Assembly (NCBI GenBank): GCA_017861415.1 | Contig: JAGFXS010000014.1 | Span: forward strand, 1 to 15,057 | DNA: 15,057 nt | Direction of reading: 5' to 3' | Origin: Bacillota bacterium | GTDB taxonomy: Bacteria > Bacillota > Clostridia > Oscillospirales > Oscillospiraceae | Shown: positions 1 through 15,057 of the stretch, piece by piece | Position numbering within the stretch: position 1 is the first letter of the stretch | Layout of the letters: each line of letters starts with the position of its first letter | Made by a program: the position numbers and the translations under genes | The notes under the pieces: generated by a model | What the model saw: the letters and a program-made list of their open reading frames with translations, nothing else | Databases searched by the model: none | Told to the model about the DNA's origin: nothing

Positions 1-99
1 TATCAGGGCGAGATCCGTGTGGAGTCGGATGTGGGGATGGGTACCCGCTTCTATATAACCTTCCGCCGCGGCCCCGGGAAGGAGAGCAGCTATGTTTAA
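1..99 (+). CDS. Sensor histidine kinase, C-terminal end only (partial)
   Basis: The reading frame is open from base 1 and ends at TAA 97-99, so only the last 32 residues are in the window. They include GEIRVESDVGMGTRFYITF, which matches the G2-box end of a HATPase_c domain, the ATP-binding lobe of histidine kinases. The stop overlaps the start of the response regulator at 92 by 8 bases, so the pair is translationally coupled and very likely a cognate two-component system. Given the type of regulator, the kinase is probably of the CitA/DcuS class, which senses external carboxylates through a periplasmic PAS domain. That part lies outside the window, so the class is inference. Confidence 0.85.
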   Translation, partial: YQGEIRVESDVGMGTRFYITFRRGPGKESSYV

Positions 100-808
100 G
101 GTGGCAATTGTGGAAGACGACCACATGGTTTCTATGCTTAACAGGAGTTTTACCTCTCGAGATAAGCGTTTTCAGGTGATGAAGGATTTTTCTTCGGGGA
201 AAACAGCTTTGCCGTGGCTTTTGGCAAATCCAGTGGATCTTGTGATCATGGATGTATATATGCCGGTTCTCACTGGGCCGGAGCTGTTGTGGCAGCTTCG
301 AGGAGCGGGATCCGGGGTGGACGTGATAGTGGTAACTGCGGCCCACGATACTCAAACCCTTGGCGATTTGCTGAAAATGGGAGTTGTGGACTATCTGGTA
401 AAACCCTTTACAGCGCAGCGTTTTCAGCAGGCGCTGGATACCTTTTGCCAAAAACGCCTTGCGCTGGAGGGACAGACACGGGTGAGTCAGGCGGAGATTG
501 ATTGGATTTTGTCTGGCCCTGCCGCTGCAAAACCACCCCTACCCAAGGGGCTTCAGGATAAGACCATGGAGCTGATTCGCAGGGAATTGTATGAGCTGGA
601 GGAGGGCACCTGTGAGGCAATTGCAGCCAGGGCAGGACTCTCCATGGTGACCACCAGACGGTACCTGAATTATCTTTTAGATAATTGGGAGGCGGAGAGC
701 AAAACCCGCTATGACACGGGGGGACGCCCCTGCGCTGTCTACCGCATGGTGGGCAGGGTGGAGACCTTTGGTATAGATCATCAGGAACAGAACAAAGATC
801 TCATATGA
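92..808 (+). CDS. Response regulator, CitB/DcuR (CitT/DpiA) type
   Basis: This 238-residue cytoplasmic regulator has an N-terminal receiver (about 1-120) and a C-terminal helix-turn-helix domain (about 155-225). The receiver has the full set of key residues: acidic pocket E8-D9-D10, phospho-acceptor D54 in IMDVYMP, T82 and K104 in the DYLVKPF motif. The C-terminal part (EAIAARAGLSMVTTRRYLNYL) resembles the HTH of the CitB/DcuR/DpiA family, which controls uptake and use of citrate, malate or other dicarboxylates; this length is usual for the family. The start has an AAGGAG site at 79-84, 7 bases upstream, and overlaps the kinase stop. Its target genes are not evident: the next genes are a protease-like membrane protein and, on the other strand, a transporter. 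The family call is good, the carboxylate role is inference. Confidence 0.88.
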   Translation: MFKVAIVEDDHMVSMLNRSFTSRDKRFQVMKDFSSGKTALPWLLANPVDLVIMDVYMPVLTGPELLWQLRGAGSGVDVIVVTAAHDTQTLGDLLKMGVVDYLVKPFTAQRFQQALDTFCQKRLALEGQTRVSQAEIDWILSGPAAAKPPLPKGLQDKTMELIRRELYELEEGTCEAIAARAGLSMVTTRRYLNYLLDNWEAESKTRYDTGGRPCAVYRMVGRVETFGIDHQEQNKDLI

Positions 809-1872: not shown

Positions 1873-1924
1873 AAAAACCCACGAGGGAATCAACCGAGTA
1901 CGGTTGATTCCCTCGTGGGTTTTT
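1873..1924. terminator. Perfect bidirectional intrinsic terminator between convergent genes
   Basis: Two 24-base arms (1873-1896 and 1901-1924) are perfectly complementary around a 4-base AGTA loop. The core is ACCCACGAGGG...CCCTCGTGGGT, flanked by an A-run on the left and a T-run on the right, so the hairpin has a U tract when read on either strand. It starts directly after the protease stop codon and lies about 50 bases beyond the stop of the minus-strand transporter, so it should end both transcripts. Confidence 0.95.
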
Positions 1925-1976: not shown

Positions 1977-3422
1977 TTACTCTTCAATATCTGTGAAGTG
2001 GGACTGGGCGGTAGTGGTCACCCCGGAAACTACCTGAGCTGCTCGGTCTACTTTATTGACGCCCACGTACTCCAAAAAGACGCAGAGCAGGATCCCGATG
2101 AGCAAACCAATAGAAGGGTTTGGACTGACGGCAATGGCACCGCCGCAGAGTCCGGCTACGCCACGCTCTACATTGGTTCGGCACATATTAACGCCGATAT
2201 AGAAACAGGCGAAGGCCTGAATCATCCAGGTAAGCTCCATGGCCAGCACCAAAAAGGGCCGCACCAGAGCAATCGCGGGCACAAAGAGATGGCATAACAT
2301 CTTTGTTACGTTAAAGGTGCAGACACCGCCGAATATGGAATACATATTTTGCTCACCGCTTTTATAGCGCTCCGCTATGGTGACATTCATGCCGGCCCAA
2401 ATGGGGCCGGACATAGTGCAGGTGGGCGCAAAGAGGCATTCCACGAGGTTTCGGATGCCGCAGCAGACATGAGTGCGGTTGGTGTTCATATCAATGCTCT
2501 CATCAGGCCGATAGGTATGAGCCTCCTTCAGTACGGAAGTGCCATTCACCATGTCTCCAAAGGCAATGAGATAACAGGCGATGGCAATAGGAACGGCGGA
2601 GGCCACAATGGACAGAGGTGGTAAACCGAGGGCGAAGAATGAGAACGTTTCATGTACTTCTCTCAAATGGGGAAAGGGGTTAAAGAAAATGTGAGACAAA
2701 TCTAATGTGGGGAAGGGGAGCTCACCGACCATCATGCCTACAATACCGCCCACCAAAAGGGCCGGTACAAAACCAAACTTACTGATGGCTTTTATTAATT
2801 TGTTTTTGCTGGTAAACTTTAGTTTGCCAAAGCCGTAAGAATAGAGCAAATAAAGGGCGAGGACGACACCTACTGAAAAGCTGATGGGGTTGGCCCAAAA
2901 ACCGGCACCACCCTGCTCCAGGGAACGGAAGCCGTACTTGCCAGTACAGGCTGCGAAGCTGGATCCCACCAAAATGCCTGCCTTAAGGGAGCGGGGGCAG
3001 AGCTTAACTAGCTTTGCTCCAAGTCCCGTAATGCCCAAAATAAAAAACATAAGACCCAGTACCAGTTCTAGGGAGAGCAAGGCCCATATCCGGTTTGGTC
3101 CGGACTGCTGGTATAGGTAGACCACAATCAAGGGAAGCCCCGGCGTGATCCAGCCACCTACCAAAGGGTCACCTAAAAAGTTATTAACAAGATATAACGC
3201 CTCATGGACGATGACTATGGACAATGCCATCTCAAAGGAAATGCCGAAAAGATCCTGAAGGTATGCGGTCGCTGCAGTGCCTGTGACAAATACCACCATA
3301 GCCTGAATCATTTCGGGAAACTCCCATTCCCAGTGGAGGAATGGAAGTCTCAGTTTGAAGAGACCTAAGGGGATATAAGGTTGCTCCTCACCTGGCTGTC
3401 TTTTGTATCTGGGCAGTAACAT
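1977..3422 (-). CDS. Polytopic membrane transporter, UraA/SulP-fold-like, paralogue 1
   Basis: An integral membrane protein of 481 residues with about 12-14 hydrophobic segments. Segments such as GGWITPGLPLIVVYL, the SLKAGILVG stretch and the NRTHVCCGIRNLVECLFAPT region resemble in layout the NCS2 (nucleobase) and SulP (anion) transporters of the 7+7 inverted-repeat fold; D290 in LIAFGD sits where such transporters keep a key acidic residue. This assignment is inference, and the substrate is unknown. It is a clear paralogue of 4454-5956: in one aligned stretch of 87 residues I counted 51 identities. The frame is open back to 3527, overlapping the ANTAR gene, but alignment with the paralogue puts the start at ATG 3422 (MLLPRYK). 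The site before it is modest (AAAGGG about 11 bases upstream), so coupling to the ANTAR gene, which ends 67 bases upstream, is likely. The two form one operon. Confidence 0.8.
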   Translation of the reverse strand: MLLPRYKRQPGEEQPYIPLGLFKLRLPFLHWEWEFPEMIQAMVVFVTGTAATAYLQDLFGISFEMALSIVIVHEALYLVNNFLGDPLVGGWITPGLPLIVVYLYQQSGPNRIWALLSLELVLGLMFFILGITGLGAKLVKLCPRSLKAGILVGSSFAACTGKYGFRSLEQGGAGFWANPISFSVGVVLALYLLYSYGFGKLKFTSKNKLIKAISKFGFVPALLVGGIVGMMVGELPFPTLDLSHIFFNPFPHLREVHETFSFFALGLPPLSIVASAVPIAIACYLIAFGDMVNGTSVLKEAHTYRPDESIDMNTNRTHVCCGIRNLVECLFAPTCTMSGPIWAGMNVTIAERYKSGEQNMYSIFGGVCTFNVTKMLCHLFVPAIALVRPFLVLAMELTWMIQAFACFYIGVNMCRTNVERGVAGLCGGAIAVSPNPSIGLLIGILLCVFLEYVGVNKVDRAAQVVSGVTTTAQSHFTDIEE

Positions 3423-3489
3423 AGCAAGTTCATCCCTTTCTGTTTCGAAACCATCAGCCAACGGCAGATAGGAAAAATAACTCCGAAAA

Positions 3490-4083
3490 TCAGACAGTAG
3501 TATATTTGCGGATAATATCGGAAGCAATGACGGTCTTTTTTACGCAGGCATCCATGGCCTGTTTTTCTATAAAGTAATGAGCATCTTCTTCGTTTAGCTT
3601 TAGGCGATCCATCAAAATAAGCTTTGCCCGATTGACTAGGCGGTCACCCTCAAGCTTCTGTTGCAGCTTATCGGCTCTACTTTCCAGCTTGCGGATCTTT
3701 GCCTGAAAGGTGAGAAGCAGTCGGATGGTTTGCATAATCAGATGGGCATCGAGGGGTTTTTTAAAAGTTACAATGCCCATTCGTTCTGCCTGATAAAGGG
3801 TCTTTTCATAAACCGATGAGTCCACCAACAAGATGATACCGGAGGAGAGTGATTTACCTCGAACTAAATCCATGGCAAACTGGACGCTTTCTTTAAAAGA
3901 AAGGTGAGAGTCCAAAATAATCAAATCCATATCTGTGTTGATGAGAGAACGCTTGGCTTCGCTGACACTGGAAACGCAATGGGCGGGAGCAAAACCTTCA
4001 GACAACAGCATACTGTCAAGCTCTCGTGACAGAGAGGGGGAAGCGACAATCAGTATGCTTGCGAGAGCAAGAAAATCCGGCAT
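3490..4083 (-). CDS. ANTAR-domain transcription antiterminator with degenerate receiver domain
   Basis: A 197-residue cytoplasmic protein with a receiver-like domain (about 9-125), a coiled-coil linker (about 126-147) and a C-terminal ANTAR domain (about 145-195: EGDRLVNRAKLILMDRL...EEDAHYFIEKQAMD). ANTAR proteins such as AmiR, NasR and EutV bind paired hexaloop hairpins in leader RNA and block a terminator. The receiver keeps an aspartate at the phospho-acceptor place (D58 in LIILDSH) and a lysine (K109), but the usual acidic pair is replaced by Ala-Ser (ILIVASPS). Classical phosphorylation therefore looks doubtful, as in the pseudo-receiver of AmiR. The start at 4083 is chosen because AGGTGG lies 8 bases upstream; the frame extends to a TTG at 4134 without a good site. 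The gene leads an operon with transporter 1, and its own leader holds a terminator with an ANTAR-type hairpin. No sensor partner is adjacent. Confidence 0.88.
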   Translation of the reverse strand: MPDFLALASILIVASPSLSRELDSMLLSEGFAPAHCVSSVSEAKRSLINTDMDLIILDSHLSFKESVQFAMDLVRGKSLSSGIILLVDSSVYEKTLYQAERMGIVTFKKPLDAHLIMQTIRLLLTFQAKIRKLESRADKLQQKLEGDRLVNRAKLILMDRLKLNEEDAHYFIEKQAMDACVKKTVIASDIIRKYTTV

Positions 4084-4097: not shown

Positions 4098-4150
4098 TTC
4101 TCTGGAACGACGTGGCTCGGAGGAAGTGAGGCAAAGCAAATGGATAAAAT

Positions 4151-4205
4151 AAAAAACGATCACGACAAACAAGGAGAACAATATGTCTCCCCTCGCTGTC
4201 AGTGA
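4151..4205 (-). terminator. Leader terminator in the 5' UTR of the ANTAR operon
   Basis: On the minus strand a long imperfect hairpin forms from TCAC-GACA-GGGGAGA (4205-4186) and TCTCCTT-TGTC-GTGA (4177-4160), with one bulged base, a small internal loop and an 8-base apical loop. It is followed by TCG and six T (4156-4151), which is the form of an intrinsic terminator. It lies between the promoter at 4269-4297 and the ANTAR start at 4083, so it would stop transcription before the coding region unless relieved. Its 5' arm shares bases 4201-4205 with the hexaloop hairpin just upstream. Confidence 0.78.
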
Positions 4206-4246
4206 ACGCCTTTGCCCACCCAACTTCATTTCATCAATGCAGAAAT
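4201..4246 (-). promoter_or_regulatory. Candidate ANTAR-binding RNA element, autoregulatory leader
   Basis: On the minus strand a clear hairpin (4219-4202) has arms GTGGGC and GTTCAC, two G-U pairs, and a six-base loop AAAGGC (4213-4208) with A at position 1 and G at position 4. These are the bases ANTAR domains recognise. Its 3' arm overlaps the 5' arm of the terminator at 4151-4205, so the two structures exclude each other. The expected first hairpin is less clear: the stretch 4246-4228 can pair ATTTC with GAAAT around a 9-base loop containing ATTGAT, which also has A1 and G4, but the stem near the loop is poor. The likely binder is the protein encoded directly downstream. Confidence 0.68.
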
Positions 4247-4268: not shown

Positions 4269-4297
4269 AGTATACAAAAGGGAAGTATTTATGTCAA
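4269..4297 (-). promoter_or_regulatory. Sigma-A type promoter for the ANTAR-transporter 1 operon
   Basis: On the minus strand TTGACA (4297-4292), a perfect -35 box, is followed by a 17-base spacer and TATACT (4274-4269). Start of transcription near 4262 is expected, giving a leader of about 180 bases that contains the hexaloop hairpin and terminator. Confidence 0.85.
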
Positions 4298-4453: not shown

Positions 4454-5956
4454 TTAATTATGAACGGTCAGCTTGCCCTCAAACTTCAGAGCAGCGCGTT
4501 CAGCTTCTTCGATTTCTGGAGTGACCTGAGCCATCCCGTCGGCCACAAGGCGCGCGCGCTCCTTGCGGTTTGTGTTGATAAACTCGCAGACTATGGAGAG
4601 AACAATGCCAACGAAGAGGCCCAGGGAAGGTGTGGCGCTGGTGGCGATAACGCAGGCGGTGATGCCAGCCACGCCGCGCTCGATGTTGGTACGGCAGAAG
4701 GTCATTCCCACATAGAAGGAGCCAAAGGCCTGGATCATCAGGGTTAGGGACATAGCCAGTGGCAGAACGGGGCGAACCAGAGCCATCAGGGGGATACAAG
4801 CACAGCTGAGCACCTTAAAGAGGTTGAAGGTACAGGCGCCGCCGAAGATGGAGTACATGTTATCCTTGCCGGACTTGTAGCGCTCGGCAACGGTAACGGT
4901 CATGGCGGTCCACAGGGGGCCGGACATGGTGCAGGTGGGGGCGAAGCAAGCTTCGAAAATGTTACGAATGCCGCAGCAGAGGTTGGTTCTGTCTGCGCTG
5001 ATATCCATATCCTCGTCTTCGCGGAAACGCTTGGTTTCGCTATAGAAAGCGGTGCCGGCAACCACGTCGCCAAAAGCGATGATGTAGGTCATGACGGCCA
5101 TGGGCAGAGCGGTAAGGAAGATATGTGCCGGGGGCAGGCCTACGCCGAAGAGGGTAAAGTTATGGAAAGCCCAAGCAAGGCCGGGGAAGGGATTCAAGAC
5201 GATACCGGGTTCGGTGAACACGGGAGTGCCGATTTCTTTAATGGCCATGCCCACAACATAGGCGACCAACAGGGCGGGAACGAAGCCCAGCTTGGAAATC
5301 AGCTTGATAAAGGGATTGTGACCGCGCTTTACCTTGCCAAAGCCATAAGAGAACAGCAGGAAGAGGGCCAGAAGGACACCGATGGTGAAGGTGATGGGCA
5401 TGGCCCAGAAGCCTTTACCACCATTTTCAACGGTTTTGAAGCCGTATGTACCGATACAGGCCGACATACCTGCACCCATAAGGATACCACCCTTAAGGGA
5501 AGACGGACACCAGCCCACAAGTTTGCCTGCGAGTTTGGTAACGCCCAAGCCCACATACAGCACGCCAAGTAATATTTCCAAGGCAAGCAGTGCGTGTATC
5601 CGGTCGTAAACACCAGCAGCGGGGTTATAGTCATACTGACCTAAATAGGTGATGATAAGCGGAACCGCCGGGGTGATCCAGCCGCCTATGAGTGCGTCGC
5701 CCATCATATTTTGCCAGAGGTATAAGAACTCGTGAACGATAATAATGGAGATTGCGGTTTTGAAATCCAGACCAAATTGCTGTTCCAGATATACGGTTGC
5801 GGAAGCGCCGGTCATAAAAACGATCATACCCTGAATGGCTTCCGGGACTTCAATCTCCCAATGAACCAGGGGCAGACGGATATGGAACATACCGGCCTTA
5901 ATGTGGGGCTGCAACTGACCATGCTCGCGGACTGCACTTTTGAACATGATTGGCAT
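4454..5956 (-). CDS. Polytopic membrane transporter, UraA/SulP-fold-like, paralogue 2
   Basis: A 500-residue integral membrane protein with about 12-14 hydrophobic segments and a charged C-terminal tail (about 463-500). It is the paralogue of 1977-3422 over the whole length. Shared landmarks are RLPLVHWEIEVPEAIQ (27-42), GGWITPAVPL (91-100), the GFVPALLV stretch near 224-231, D297 in IIAFGD, and a cysteine-rich block from C327-C328 (CCGIRN) to C342 (APTCTMSGP). The layout recalls NCS2 and SulP transporters, where the acidic residue in the eighth helix contacts the substrate, but this is a distant resemblance and the substrate is unknown. The start is firm: AGGAGG at 5969-5964 lies 7 bases before ATG 5956. 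The leader upstream holds a promoter, two hexaloop hairpins and a terminator, so expression should depend on the ANTAR protein encoded nearby. Confidence 0.82.
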   Translation of the reverse strand: MPIMFKSAVREHGQLQPHIKAGMFHIRLPLVHWEIEVPEAIQGMIVFMTGASATVYLEQQFGLDFKTAISIIIVHEFLYLWQNMMGDALIGGWITPAVPLIITYLGQYDYNPAAGVYDRIHALLALEILLGVLYVGLGVTKLAGKLVGWCPSSLKGGILMGAGMSACIGTYGFKTVENGGKGFWAMPITFTIGVLLALFLLFSYGFGKVKRGHNPFIKLISKLGFVPALLVAYVVGMAIKEIGTPVFTEPGIVLNPFPGLAWAFHNFTLFGVGLPPAHIFLTALPMAVMTYIIAFGDVVAGTAFYSETKRFREDEDMDISADRTNLCCGIRNIFEACFAPTCTMSGPLWTAMTVTVAERYKSGKDNMYSIFGGACTFNLFKVLSCACIPLMALVRPVLPLAMSLTLMIQAFGSFYVGMTFCRTNIERGVAGITACVIATSATPSLGLFVGIVLSIVCEFINTNRKERARLVADGMAQVTPEIEEAERAALKFEGKLTVHN

Positions 5957-6115: not shown

Positions 6116-6169
6116 AAAAAGCGCTCACCGAACAAAGGGTATCAATTACCCTTGTTGTCCGGTGAGCGC
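6116..6169 (-). terminator. Leader terminator upstream of transporter 2
   Basis: On the minus strand GCGCTCACCG (6169-6160) pairs perfectly with CGGTGAGCGC (6130-6121). Inside, AACAAGGGT (6156-6148) pairs with ACCCTTTGTT (6140-6131) with one bulge, around a 7-base loop. Five T follow directly (6120-6116). This is a strong intrinsic terminator placed 160 bases before the transporter start and about 50 bases after the likely transcription start, so it is an attenuator and does not end an upstream gene: the neighbouring gene on the other side is divergent. Its 5' arm shares bases 6160-6169 with the loop and 3' arm of the second hexaloop hairpin. Confidence 0.9.
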
Positions 6170-6209
6170 CATTGCTCACATCAGAAGCCAGTGAACTTCA
6201 TTGCTCACT
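6162..6209 (-). promoter_or_regulatory. Tandem hexaloop ANTAR-target RNA (P1 and P2 hairpins)
   Basis: On the minus strand two hairpins follow each other. P1 (6209-6190) has arms AGTGAGC and GTTCACT (seven pairs, one G-U) and loop AATGAA (6202-6197). P2 (6179-6162) has arms GTGAGC and GCTCAC (six perfect pairs) and loop AATGGC (6173-6168). A 10-base linker separates them. Both six-base loops have A at position 1 and G at position 4, the known hallmark of ANTAR targets, and both hairpins share the 10-mer GTGAGCAATG. P2 cannot form together with the terminator at 6116-6169. ANTAR binding to P1 and P2 would therefore let transcription run on into the transporter gene. The binder is presumably the protein at 3490-4083. 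Confidence 0.85.
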
Positions 6210-6223
6210 TCCTATTTGATGAT

Positions 6224-6252
6224 ACTATATCACTAGCATACAGAAAAGTAAA
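6224..6252 (-). promoter_or_regulatory. Promoter for the transporter 2 leader
   Basis: On the minus strand TTTACT (6252-6247), a 17-base spacer and TATAGT (6229-6224) fit a sigma-A promoter with 4 of 6 and 5 of 6 consensus bases. Transcription would begin near 6217, a few bases before hairpin P1. Confidence 0.65.
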
Positions 6253-9078: not shown

Positions 9079-11172
9079 ATGAGATCGATAAAGCTAAGAC
9101 TGATTGTTATGTTCACGCTTGTGATTCTCGCTGTGACAGCAGCACTGGGTATGATTACCCTGAATGTTGTAAGAGATGACCTGATACAGACGGCGCGGGC
9201 CGACCTGGAAGAAATGGCCCGGGTTCAGGCCAAATATGTCACAGCCAGATCCAGCGCCCAAGTGGAGTATCTCACATCTTTGGCGCAAAACCCCCTGATT
9301 ACCAATCCAAATGCGACGTTGGAAGAGAAGATTGCTTTTTTTGAGCAGGAAGCCCAGCGGACCAATTACCAGCGCTTTGCCATTGCGGATAAAGCGGGTA
9401 ACGCCCAGCTTTTAACCTCTAGCCGGGAGATCAATCAGGTAGCAGACCGGGAGTTTTTCCAGACCGCTTTAAAGGGAGAAGCTACCATGTCGGACCTCCT
9501 CTTCAGTAAGCTGGATGATCAGCCTGTGGTGGTGTATGCGGCACCCATTAAGGTCAATGGAGAGATTGTCGGTGTGCTGTATGGTGCGAGAGACGGGTTG
9601 ATCCTCAGTGAGATCACCAAAGACGTACTGTATAAGACTACTGGTTACGGCTACATTGTGAACAACGAAGGAACAACCGTTGGACACAAGAATACCGATC
9701 TGGTTATCGCCAAAGACAATGATATCGAAAACGCAAAAACGATTCCTGAGCTTAAGCAGTTGGGTGCCCTGACGGAGCAGATGATTACCCGTACCGTGGG
9801 CACTGGCGAATATACATATAACAACGTCAGCAAGCTGGTGGGCTATGCCCCCATTGAAAATACGCCTTGGATTATGGCACTGACGGTAGAGCAGAGCGAG
9901 ATTCTTCAGGGCGTGACAGATCTGACCCGTATCTTGCTGATTCTGTGTGTTGTGGTGCTGGTGGTGGGTGTGGCCGCTACTTATGTCATTAGCGGCAGGA
10001 TTTCGAAACCCATCGTGAAGATCACCAGGGCCGCCCAGGAAATTGCCGATGGCACCTTCAACGTCACTTTGGATGTGAAATCCAACGATGAGATCGGTAG
10101 TCTGGCTGAGGCCTTCCGGTTGACCATTGACCGGTTGGTAAATTACCAAGGCTATATCGACGAAGTGTCCGACTGCCTACGGGAGATTGCAGGTGGCAAC
10201 CTGACGATAGAGCTCCACCGAGAGTATACTGGACAGTTCCGCCAGGTAAAGGATAACATGCAGGCCATGATCGAGCGGCTAAACGATACATTGGTGCAAA
10301 TCAATCAATCTGCCGACCAGGTCAACAACCACGCCGACCAGGTTGCCCACGGGGCCCAGGCTTTGTCCCAGGGTGCAACAGAGCAGGCCAGCTCTGTGGA
10401 GGAGCTCTCCGCTTCCATTTCGGAAACTGCAGAGCAAATCCGCAGAAACGCGGAGCACGCGGCTACTGCCCATGAAAAAGCGAATTTTGCTGGCAGCGAG
10501 CTCCGGCAGAGCAATGAACAAATGAGCGCCATGGTGGATGCCATGAATGAGATTGCCCGGAAATCCGACGAGATTTCCAAAATTATTAAGGCTATTGATG
10601 ACATTGCCTTCCAGACGAATATTCTGGCGCTTAATGCTGCGGTTGAGGCTGCTCGTGCTGGGGCTGCGGGCAAGGGCTTTGCCGTTGTTGCTGATGAAGT
10701 AAGAAATCTGGCAGGGAAATCCGCCCAGGCCGCCACGGATACCACCGCTTTGATTGAGGAAACCCTGGTGGCCGTCCGCAACGGCAGCAAGATGGCTGAG
10801 GTTACGGCGAAATCCCTGGGTGAGAGTGGCCGGGAAACCGGAGAAGCCATTACTCTCATTAATCGGATTGCGGAAGACTCCAAGGAGCAGGCGGATTCCG
10901 TAATGCAGATCAACCTGGGTGTGGAGCAGATCTCCGCTGTGGTGCAGACCAACGCTGCCACCGCCGAGGAAAGCGCTGCTACTAGCGAGGAGCTTACCGC
11001 TCAGTCCAATCTCCTGAAAGAGCTACTGTCTCACTTCCGTCTACGGCAAACGGACCGTACTGCCTTCGTCACTCCTGTGGCAGCACGGAAGACACCCTCT
11101 GCCTATGAGACTGGGTCTTCATACGATACTGCGCCTTTGTATACCCCCAAATATGAGGACAATTATTATTAA
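9079..11172 (+). CDS. Methyl-accepting chemotaxis protein (dCache sensor, double HAMP)
   Basis: A 697-residue membrane chemoreceptor. Membrane helix 1 spans about 8-29. An extracellular sensor of about 250 residues follows, of double-Cache type (features include [31 protein letters not shown] and [17 protein letters not shown]). Membrane helix 2 spans 285-304, then a HAMP domain (about 305-357) and a second HAMP-like segment (about 365-405: [13 protein letters not shown]...[13 protein letters not shown]). The signalling coiled coil runs from about 420 to 685 with the invariant CheA/CheW-binding tip at 511-545 ([32 protein letters not shown]). Such receptors bind small ligands, often amino or organic acids; the ligand here is unknown. 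The C terminus has no NWETF-like CheR tether and instead ends in a tyrosine-rich tail with 6 Tyr in the last 22 residues. The gene stands alone with its own terminator. Confidence 0.95.
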
Positions 11173-11191
11173 AAAGAACTGAAGCGAACTA

Positions 11192-11228
11192 AAAACGGAC
11201 CTCCGGCCTTGTGCCGGAGGTCCGTTTT
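11192..11228. terminator. Bidirectional intrinsic terminator between convergent genes
   Basis: A perfect 16-bp stem (11192-11207 and 11213-11228, core CGGACCTCCGGC) with a CTTGT loop has an A-run on the left and a T-run on the right. It ends the chemoreceptor transcript and, read the other way, the hydrolase transcript that stops at 11278. Confidence 0.93.
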
Positions 11229-11277
11229 ATTAGGAGGTGAGGGAAGCAAATCGTCCTGGAAATGTCCGCTTTTGGCG

Positions 11278-13724: not shown

Positions 13725-13739
13725 TATTTGAAAACAAAT

Positions 13740-13775
13740 CCACGCGGCGCAGCCTGAAAGGGCCACGCCGCGTGG
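13740..13775. terminator. Terminator-like hairpin between convergent genes
   Basis: Arms CCACGCGGCG (13740-13749) and CGCCGCGTGG (13766-13775) pair perfectly around a 16-base loop. The T tract is poor on the plus strand; on the minus strand the stem is followed by ATTTGTTTTC. It most likely ends the acyl-CoA synthetase transcript and perhaps also the HAD transcript. Confidence 0.65.
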
Positions 13776-13787
13776 GTGAATGATTGT

Positions 13788-15057
13788 TTAGGACATGGAC
13801 TCCCATTCCCGCAAATCACGTTTCTTGATTTTGCCACTGATGGTTTTCGGCATTTCCCGAACTACCTCCAGCTGGCGAATCCACTTGTACTCTGAGGTGC
13901 GCTCGTTACAAAAACGGCGGATATCCTTTTTTAGCTCCGCTGTCTCATCAACGCCGGGTGCCAAAAGGACAAAAGCCTTGATAGCTTGCCCTCTCAGGGG
14001 ATCCGGAACGCCTACCACAGAACATTCCATCACGGCTGGATGTTCCATGAGGACGTTTTCAATCTCAAAGGGGCCCACCCGATAGCCGCCGGTTTTGATA
14101 ATGTCATCAGCCCGGCCATTGAACCAGAAGTAACCATCCTCATCCTGCCAGGCGGTGTCTCCTGTGTGGTAGACGCCTCCCCGCCAGACATAGCGGTACA
14201 GCTCCTCGTTGTTGCAGTAGCTGTAGAAGAGCCCAGTAGGACGCTGTCCGTGTTCGTCGGGGAGCACGACAAGCTCTCCCACCTCTCCGGGGGGGACAGG
14301 GTTGCCCTCACTGTCCTGAAGGGCGATCCGGTATAGGGGCGTGGGTTTGCCCATAGAACCTGGCTTTAAGGCGCTGCACGACAGGTTCACCAGAAGGGGA
14401 GTTGACTCCGTCTGCCCGTAGCCCTCCATGATGGTTAGACCGGTGGCCTCCCTAAACTTATAAAAGACCTCGGGATTGAGAGCCTCCCCTGCAGTGGTGA
14501 CATGCCGCAGACTTTTCATGGGGACAAGTCCTGTCTTCACCAGATAGCGGTAGATGGTGGGGGGCGCACAGAAGCTGGTTACCTGATACCGATTAATTAC
14601 CCCCATCAGCTGCCTGGGGTCAAAGCTATCGAAGTCGAAGACCATGACGGCGGAACCTACCAGCCACTGGCCGTAGAGCTTTCCCCAGGAGGCTTTCGCC
14701 CAGCCGGTCTCTGCCACGGTAAAGTGGAGTCCACCGTCAAAGGCCTTTTGCCAGTGTCGTGCGGTGAGGATGTGAGCCAGGGAATAGGCGTGGTTGTGGA
14801 TGACGCCCTTTGGATAACCTGTTGTGCCAGAGGTAAAATAGGCAAACATGGGCTCCTGGGCTAGGGTGTCCACCCGGGCAAGAGAATCAGAAGCGGACGC
14901 CATGGCTTCGGTCAAGTTTACACAACCGGGATGGGCTGTGCGCACGGTGAAAATGGTCTGAAGCTCCGGCGCAGCCGCTTGGGCCTCCAGAAAATGATCG
15001 GGGGCGTGGTCCTCACAGGTGCATACGGCGGCCTTCATATGCCCTTCTTTTACCCGG
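13788..15057 (-). CDS. AMP-forming acyl-CoA synthetase, medium-chain (ACSM)-like, N-terminus beyond the window
   Basis: The reading frame is open to the window edge: upstream of Met 15038 it continues in frame as RVKEGH, so this Met is internal. Family members have about 550 residues, so roughly the first quarter is missing. The visible part has the ANL-superfamily motifs in order: the phosphate-binding loop TSGTTGYPKGV, the GYGQTES adenine motif, YHTGDTAW, the hinge region GRADDIIKTGGYRVGPFEIEN, and the catalytic-lysine motif PKTISGKIKKRDLRE near the end. The stretch AETGWAKASWGKLYGQW and FCAPPTIYRYLV match the medium-chain acyl-CoA synthetase branch better than acetyl-CoA synthetase. The enzyme would activate a fatty or aromatic acid to its CoA thioester by way of an acyl-AMP; the exact acid is unknown. 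Confidence 0.92.
   Translation of the reverse strand, partial: RVKEGHMKAAVCTCEDHAPDHFLEAQAAAPELQTIFTVRTAHPGCVNLTEAMASASDSLARVDTLAQEPMFAYFTSGTTGYPKGVIHNHAYSLAHILTARHWQKAFDGGLHFTVAETGWAKASWGKLYGQWLVGSAVMVFDFDSFDPRQLMGVINRYQVTSFCAPPTIYRYLVKTGLVPMKSLRHVTTAGEALNPEVFYKFREATGLTIMEGYGQTESTPLLVNLSCSALKPGSMGKPTPLYRIALQDSEGNPVPPGEVGELVVLPDEHGQRPTGLFYSYCNNEELYRYVWRGGVYHTGDTAWQDEDGYFWFNGRADDIIKTGGYRVGPFEIENVLMEHPAVMECSVVGVPDPLRGQAIKAFVLLAPGVDETAELKKDIRRFCNERTSEYKWIRQLEVVREMPKTISGKIKKRDLREWESMS

What the first reader, a model, noticed from the sequence alone, without database searches (positions are those of the whole stretch)
6116..6209. Complete ANTAR antitermination switch in the leader of an uncharacterised transporter
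Seen directly: on the minus strand two hairpins with loops AATGAA and AATGGC (A1 and G4 in both), a 10-base linker, and an intrinsic terminator whose 5' arm reuses bases of the second hairpin (6160-6169), all between a promoter (6224-6252) and the start of the transporter (5956). Established: ANTAR proteins such as EutV and NasR bind dual hexaloop hairpins and prevent terminator formation. Inference: the ANTAR protein encoded at 3490-4083 controls this gene. I know of no described ANTAR-regulated transporter of this type.
Basis: partly seen in the sequence, partly recalled or inferred. Interest (0 to 1): 0.85.

Follow-up and report, generated by a model that had tools for sequence, protein, structure and literature searches.

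The report
ANTAR antitermination leader before PurT-like transporter
A clostridial bacterium appears to switch on a probable nucleobase transporter by letting a neighbouring RNA-binding protein block a stop signal in the transporter's messenger RNA; the mechanism is known, while the target gene and a one-hairpin second copy of the switch are the new parts.

Summary
On the minus strand, 6209-6162 folds into two hairpins (7 and 6 bp) with A1/G4 hexaloops AATGAA and AATGGC, a 10-nt linker, and an intrinsic terminator (6169-6121, then U5) that uses the 3' half of the second hairpin. In 100 shuffles of the window no dual motif with overlapping terminator arose. A covariance model made only from the two [Clostridium] viride leaders finds the site at E 5.4e-14. 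A model from all three leaders, run over 19 genomes, scores only these three above 70 bits, each before a transporter with an orthologous ANTAR gene beside it; the next hit has 22.4 bits. The transporter matches PurT of known structure (7tak, E 1.7e-87), so nucleobase uptake is the best guess. Best reading: a local ANTAR circuit, perhaps self-regulated. New member of a known kind; binding and antitermination are inferred.

The parts
6224..6252 (-). promoter-like site TTTACT-17-TATAGT with TG before the -10
   Evidence: consensus match only
6190..6209 (-). P1 hairpin, 7 bp, hexaloop AAUGAA (A1, G4)
6180..6189 (-). 10-nt linker between P1 and P2
6162..6179 (-). P2 hairpin, 6 bp, hexaloop AAUGGC (A1, G4)
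6116..6169 (-). intrinsic terminator (stem 6169-6121, U5 6120-6116) sharing 6169-6162 with P2; mutually exclusive with P2
   Evidence: z -9.56
4454..5956 (-). transporter Tr1, 500 aa, PurT-like (7tak, E 1.7e-87)
4269..4297 (-). promoter-like site TTGACA-17-TATACT (11 of 12) before the ANTAR gene
4201..4220 (-). single ANTAR-type hairpin GGUGGGC-AAAGGC-GUUCACU (A1, G4); 16 of 18 core bases as in the P2 of one C. viride locus
4151..4210 (-). second intrinsic terminator (stem 4210-4155, U-run to 4151) overlapping that hairpin
   Evidence: z -4.99
3490..4083 (-). ANTAR protein (pseudo-receiver, coiled coil, PF03861 54.5 bits); the listed ORF starts at a TTG at 4134
1977..3527 (-). paralogous transporter Tr2 (53% to Tr1, 71% to C. 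viride Tr2); real start probably near 3422 (my estimate from homology)
1875..1922 (-). terminator after Tr2, end of the ANTAR-Tr2 unit

Best explanation
It is an ANTAR-controlled transcription attenuator. RNA polymerase starts just upstream of P1, and by default the nascent RNA folds the strong terminator and stops before Tr1. When the neighbouring ANTAR protein is activated by an unknown signal, its dimer binds the A1/G4 hexaloops of P1 and then P2, holds P2 closed, and so keeps the terminator's 5' arm from pairing; the transporter is then made. The same protein may also act on the single hairpin in its own leader, adding autocontrol of ANTAR and Tr2. Shown: hairpins, overlap, terminators, conservation in three loci, association with the orthologous ANTAR gene. 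Inferred: transcription start, binding, antitermination, the signal, and the substrate (nucleobase, by homology to PurT).
For: Mutually exclusive folds. Same layout in both C. viride loci with different terminator cores that still fold through the P2 3' arm. 39 of 39 base-pair cells kept in three leaders, 2 of 13 pairs with a change on both sides. Leave-one-out model E 5.4e-14. Of 16 genomes of the genus, a close ANTAR orthologue (48-51%) was found only in G000 and G006, and only these hold sites above 70 bits. ANTAR domain 54.5 bits against a cut-off of 27.3. EutV contact residues named by Walshe et al. 2022 (PMC8934654, abstract and passages), mapped by me through the alignment with an inferred offset of 2: K149, E160 and M172 kept, K143 and K147 are R, R177 is K, Y164 is H as in AmiR.
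Against: No experiment. EutV R142, R168, N173 and R175 are not kept at the aligned positions. Covariation in three sequences does not exceed shuffles (111 of 500 reach it). Window Tr1 is not the sister of the C. viride Tr1 copies in the tree. In C. viride the ANTAR gene is inverted and neither its leader nor the Tr2 leader has a hairpin of this sequence. The second leader lacks a good P1. The own genome is 73% complete, so another ANTAR protein cannot be excluded.
Confidence: 0.85

Rival explanations
1. The element is an ANTAR target, but the acting protein is another ANTAR protein of the cell and not the one at 3490-4083.
For: The held genome is 73% complete; many relatives carry ANTAR genes (188 of 300 genomes of the family).
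Against: Only one ANTAR gene is found in the held genome; the three strong sites lie beside the orthologous ANTAR gene and no other site in 19 genomes comes near their score. C. viride, 99% complete, has 2 PF03861 matches (places not printed) and 2 orthologues of the window's ANTAR, presumably the same two.
Confidence: 0.06
2. A constitutive or differently controlled attenuator: a terminator with a fortuitous upstream hairpin pair, or a leader read by another RNA-binding protein or ligand.
For: Intrinsic terminators in leaders serve many switches (recalled); three sequences give little covariation.
Against: A1/G4 hexaloops, linker length and P2-terminator overlap are kept in three loci; 0 of 100 shuffles give the whole arrangement; no riboswitch family matches.
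Confidence: 0.07
3. The hairpins are only a decayed repeat copied with the transporter genes and have no present role.
For: The second leader (4220-4155) looks like a copy that has lost its first hairpin.
Against: Terminator cores have diverged while hairpins and pairing are kept; the strong motif was not seen before 27 other transporter genes scanned.
Confidence: 0.02

Closest known systems
EutV / eut leaders of Enterococcus faecalis (PMC3369931: abstract, section 10, passages; PMC8934654: abstract, passages)
   Same: Dual hexaloop hairpins with A1 and G4, linker 10 nt (5-12 in the E. faecalis eut genes), P2 overlapping an intrinsic terminator, ANTAR regulator.
   Different: Target is a PurT-like transporter; the receiver domain here lacks the usual N-terminal acidic pair, and no kinase was among the 9 window proteins scanned.
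AmiR / amidase operon of Pseudomonas aeruginosa (1qo0; mechanism from passages of PMC8934654)
   Same: Pseudo-receiver plus coiled coil plus ANTAR; His where EutV has Tyr164.
   Different: No AmiC-like partner among the 9 window proteins scanned; different target.
Glutamine-synthetase-linked ANTAR proteins of Clostridia
   Same: Nearest ANTAR relatives outside C. viride among those found (up to 40%); a GS-like gene lies in the flank in 28 of the 29 loci L152-L180.
   Different: The window protein sits between two transporters; no GS match in the window.
PurT, 7tak
   Same: Tr1 aligned over residues 9-457, E 1.7e-87.
   Different: Substrate of the window's proteins untested; I met no report of ANTAR control of PurT in the searches.

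Membership tests
ANTAR-target RNA (dual hexaloop antiterminator) | two hairpins with hexaloops, A at 1 and G at 4 | tested here: met
ANTAR-target RNA (dual hexaloop antiterminator) | short linker between the hairpins | tested here: met
   10 nt; eut linkers 5-12 nt (PMC3369931 passages)
ANTAR-target RNA (dual hexaloop antiterminator) | intrinsic terminator overlapping P2, mutually exclusive | tested here: met
ANTAR-target RNA (dual hexaloop antiterminator) | conserved in homologous leaders | tested here: met
   3 of 3 Tr1 leaders (the window's included) beside the orthologous ANTAR gene
ANTAR-target RNA (dual hexaloop antiterminator) | ANTAR protein binds and prevents termination | not testable with these tools
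   needs gel shift and in vitro transcription
ANTAR protein | PF03861 over the curated cut-off | tested here: met
   54.5 against 27.3 bits
ANTAR protein | RNA-contact residues of EutV | tested here: inconclusive
   K149, E160, M172 kept; K143 and K147 are R, R177 is K, Y164 is H; R142, R168, N173, R175 not kept at the aligned positions
phosphorylated EutV-type response regulator | receiver with acidic pair and phospho-acceptor Asp | tested here: not met
   an Asp is present in DLIILD, but the acidic pair is absent (ILIVASP) in the window and both C. viride copies; the pair as a criterion is recalled knowledge
second leader as dual hexaloop ANTAR target | well-formed P1 | tested here: not met
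   only a weak P1 candidate with three non-standard pairs; no second A1/G4 hairpin of 4 bp or more in that leader
PurT-like transporter | sequence relation over nearly the whole length | tested here: met
   7tak E 1.7e-87, query 9-457 of 500; no Pfam match for Tr1, BenE below its cut-off for Tr2

The most novel reading that the evidence does not exclude
The ANTAR gene's own leader (4220-4155) is a natural single-hexaloop ANTAR attenuator that works: one A1/G4 hairpin overlapping a terminator suffices for weaker autocontrol of ANTAR and Tr2, next to a full dual-hairpin switch for Tr1 in the same locus. Walshe et al. 2022 propose that single-hexaloop sites may exist (passages); this would be a native pair for testing it.
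Probability: 0.3. Interest if true: 0.55.

Novelty: new member of a known kind. Interest (0 to 1): 0.4.

Why it matters
It would place a PurT-like, probably nucleobase, transporter among ANTAR targets, fitting the link of ANTAR regulons to nitrogen supply reported by Ramesh et al. 2012, and it offers one locus with a dual-hairpin and a single-hairpin leader of nearly the same sequence, probably read by one protein: a direct natural test of how many hexaloops antitermination needs.

Tried and rejected
Rfam scan of the window at E up to 5 gave three hits, all below their gathering scores, none on the leader strand of the finding.

A wider regulon was sought with model R1 in 19 genomes at E up to 5: 31 rows. 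Three are the strong sites, one (17.2 bits) is the second leader. Of the other 27, five were checked against ORF lists and lie inside open frames that I recognise by eye as DnaA (22.4 bits, opposite strand), a LysM-type repeat protein (three tandem hits) and an oxidoreductase subunit (opposite strand); two were read as sequence only; 20 (E 0.9 or weaker) were not examined. So weaker members of the regulon are not excluded.

Pattern GTGNGCAANGNCGYTCAC with up to 2 mismatches gave 12 matches in G000 and 9 in G006 against 5 and 10 for the reversed control, so matches with 2 mismatches are background; only the 4 exact ones and 2 with one mismatch, all in the focal loci, stand out.

PurT-like genes beside an ANTAR gene: in 391 genomes of the class 12 (own included) held a transporter match; of the other 11, only G484 and G591 had an ANTAR match at E up to 1e-15, on other contigs. 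In 300 genomes of the family 22 held a transporter match; among the ANTAR places printed (a capped list) G270 has a 29% ANTAR about 4.5 kb away, without the dual motif before its transporter.

One search scanned upstream of 33 transporter genes (34 rows; 6 genes are in the three focal loci): 3 strong motifs, all in the focal loci, plus 2 weak AT-rich matches (L031, with a T-run nearby, and L034) that I judged chance. One search also shows dual A1/G4 hairpins without a terminator in L093, L098 and L100 (one similar place in each) and a weak 4-bp case with a terminator-like repeat in L145. The strict single-hairpin test (8 contiguous pairs) does not pick the second leader, whose terminator base has mismatches; one search shows the fold. 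In the tree, two rows with an internal stop (L086, L100), the interrupted Tr2 fragment and 7 of 13 class loci were left out. Structure prediction was not run.

Full report
What is there. The minus strand from 6252 to 5956 holds a promoter-like site, two hexaloop hairpins, a terminator and the start of a 500-aa transporter. P1 (6209-6190) has 7 pairs and loop AAUGAA, P2 (6179-6162) has 6 pairs and loop AAUGGC, the linker is 10 nt. Folded alone, the 48-nt piece gives exactly these two hairpins; the 6169-6111 piece gives a terminator of -35.9 kcal/mol, z -9.56. The terminator uses the last two loop bases and the whole 3' arm of P2, so P2 and terminator exclude each other, while P1 does not overlap it.

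Chance. In 100 dinucleotide shuffles of the window, dual A1/G4 hairpins with stems of at least 6 bp occurred 0.03 times on average and none had an overlapping terminator; the window has one with it.

Relatives. C. viride has two copies of the locus, each with transporter 1, an ANTAR gene on the other strand, and transporter 2, interrupted in one copy. Both transporter-1 leaders show the same two hairpins, loops AATGAC/AATGGC and AATGAC/AATGAC, linkers 10 and 9. Their terminator cores differ in sequence from the window's but fold through the same part of P2. Over the dual hairpin all 39 cells form standard pairs and 2 of 13 pairs show a change on both sides, but with three sequences this is within shuffles (111 of 500).

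Independent search. A model from the two C. viride leaders alone finds the window site at 55.6 bits, E 5.4e-14. The model from all three, run over 19 genomes, gives three hits of 71-75 bits (its own members); the next has 22.4 bits and lies on the opposite strand of an ORF that I recognise as DnaA. The pattern GTGNGCAANGNCGYTCAC without mismatch occurs 4 times in G000 and G006 together, each time in one of these loci; with two mismatches it is at background. So the circuit appears local, although 20 weak model hits were not looked at.

Association with the ANTAR gene. Of 16 genomes of the genus, 10 have a match to the transporter (G002 only a fragment, G012 in pieces). Only G000 and G006 have a close ANTAR orthologue (48-51%); G007 has one at 34%, beside an ORF that I recognise as glutamine synthetase, and G002, G011 and G014 have more distant ones at 19-23%. 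Only G000 and G006 have strong leaders. With the G007 glutamine synthetase ORF as query, 28 of the 29 class loci of the best ANTAR relatives (L152-L180) and 20 of 30 family loci (L038-L067) have a match in the flank. The window's ANTAR gene thus looks like a GS-linked type moved to a transporter locus; this is inference.

The regulator. It carries an ANTAR domain over the Pfam cut-off and matches EutV (6wsh), AmiR (1qo0) and Rv1626 (1s8n); the names EutV and Rv1626 for these entries come from Walshe et al.. Using the contacts of that paper (abstract and passages seen) and an offset of two between chain index and residue number that I inferred, Lys149, Glu160 and Met172 are kept, Lys143 and Lys147 are Arg, Arg177 is Lys, and Tyr164 is His as in AmiR; Arg142, Arg168, Asn173 and Arg175 are not kept. 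The receiver has an Asp in DLIILD but not the acidic pair, so control by a ligand or partner protein, as for AmiR, seems likelier than by a kinase; this is inference.

The transporter. Pfam and NCBIfam give no family for Tr1 and sub-cut-off BenE hits for Tr2, but Tr1 matches PurT, 7tak, over residues 9-457 with E 1.7e-87. That PurT is a proton-coupled nucleobase transporter is recalled; the paper I tried is not held. In the tree of 36 rows, Tr2 of the window pairs with Tr2 of C. viride (96/92), whereas Tr1 of the window groups with genes of another genus (97/91) and the C. viride Tr1 copies with G008 (99/97); the shared leader therefore points to an older state with losses, or to transfer.

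Second site. In 972,282 bases (both strands of 43 sources) 12 places match that P2 with up to 4 mismatches; 6 of them have a stem of 6 bp or more with A1/G4, and these 6 lie in the three focal loci. A terminator, -25.7 kcal/mol, z -4.99, starts within its loop. No good first hairpin precedes it: the leave-one-out model aligns a weak one with three non-standard pairs (16.1 bits, E 0.0039). In C. viride no hairpin of this sequence was seen in the ANTAR or Tr2 leaders; other A1/G4 hairpins there are two weak ones in the C1 ANTAR leader and a 6-bp one next to the start of the C1 Tr2. Walshe et al. define a single hexaloop as the minimal binding motif but need contact with each loop for antitermination (abstract); NasR binds a single hairpin with poorer affinity, about 12 uM (passage of PMC7496416). 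So this site is either a weaker switch or decaying.

Print. Ramesh et al. 2012 list ammonium, urea, nitrate and nitrite transporters among ANTAR targets (section 10 read), and the words permease, purine, uracil and viride do not occur in their main text; supplements could not be read. PMC8164766 reports ABC and MFS transporters and aquaporins in actinobacteria (12 of 18 passages seen). Searches for ANTAR with purine, with xanthine and permease, with nucleobase (10 of 11 listed), and with Clostridium viride (no paper) listed nothing that, from title and start of abstract, describes an ANTAR-controlled PurT-like transporter.

Noticed in passing
L023:9288-14975 (C. viride): The second transporter of one C. 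viride copy is split: its pieces lie about 11 kb apart (G006:C1:226305-226946 and 237995-238846, the latter with stops), and three ORFs that look like recombinases lie between.
   Followed up: no
window 4220-4155: Single-hexaloop ANTAR-type hairpin overlapping a terminator in the ANTAR gene's own leader.
   Followed up: yes
L023, just before 9288: A 6-bp A1/G4 hexaloop hairpin (AATTCG-AAAGGG-CGGATT) next to the start of Tr2 in one C. viride copy, possibly over the ribosome-binding site; may be chance.
   Followed up: no
L152-L180: Closest ANTAR relatives across the class lie beside glutamine synthetase-like genes (28 of 29 loci).
   Followed up: partly
window 92-808: DcuR-like response regulator (140 bits to PRK10430, below its cut-off), possibly unrelated.
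   Followed up: no
window 11165-11240 and 13733-13830: Sub-threshold Rfam matches (BSnc120, tfoR) that look like plain terminator hairpins.
   Followed up: no
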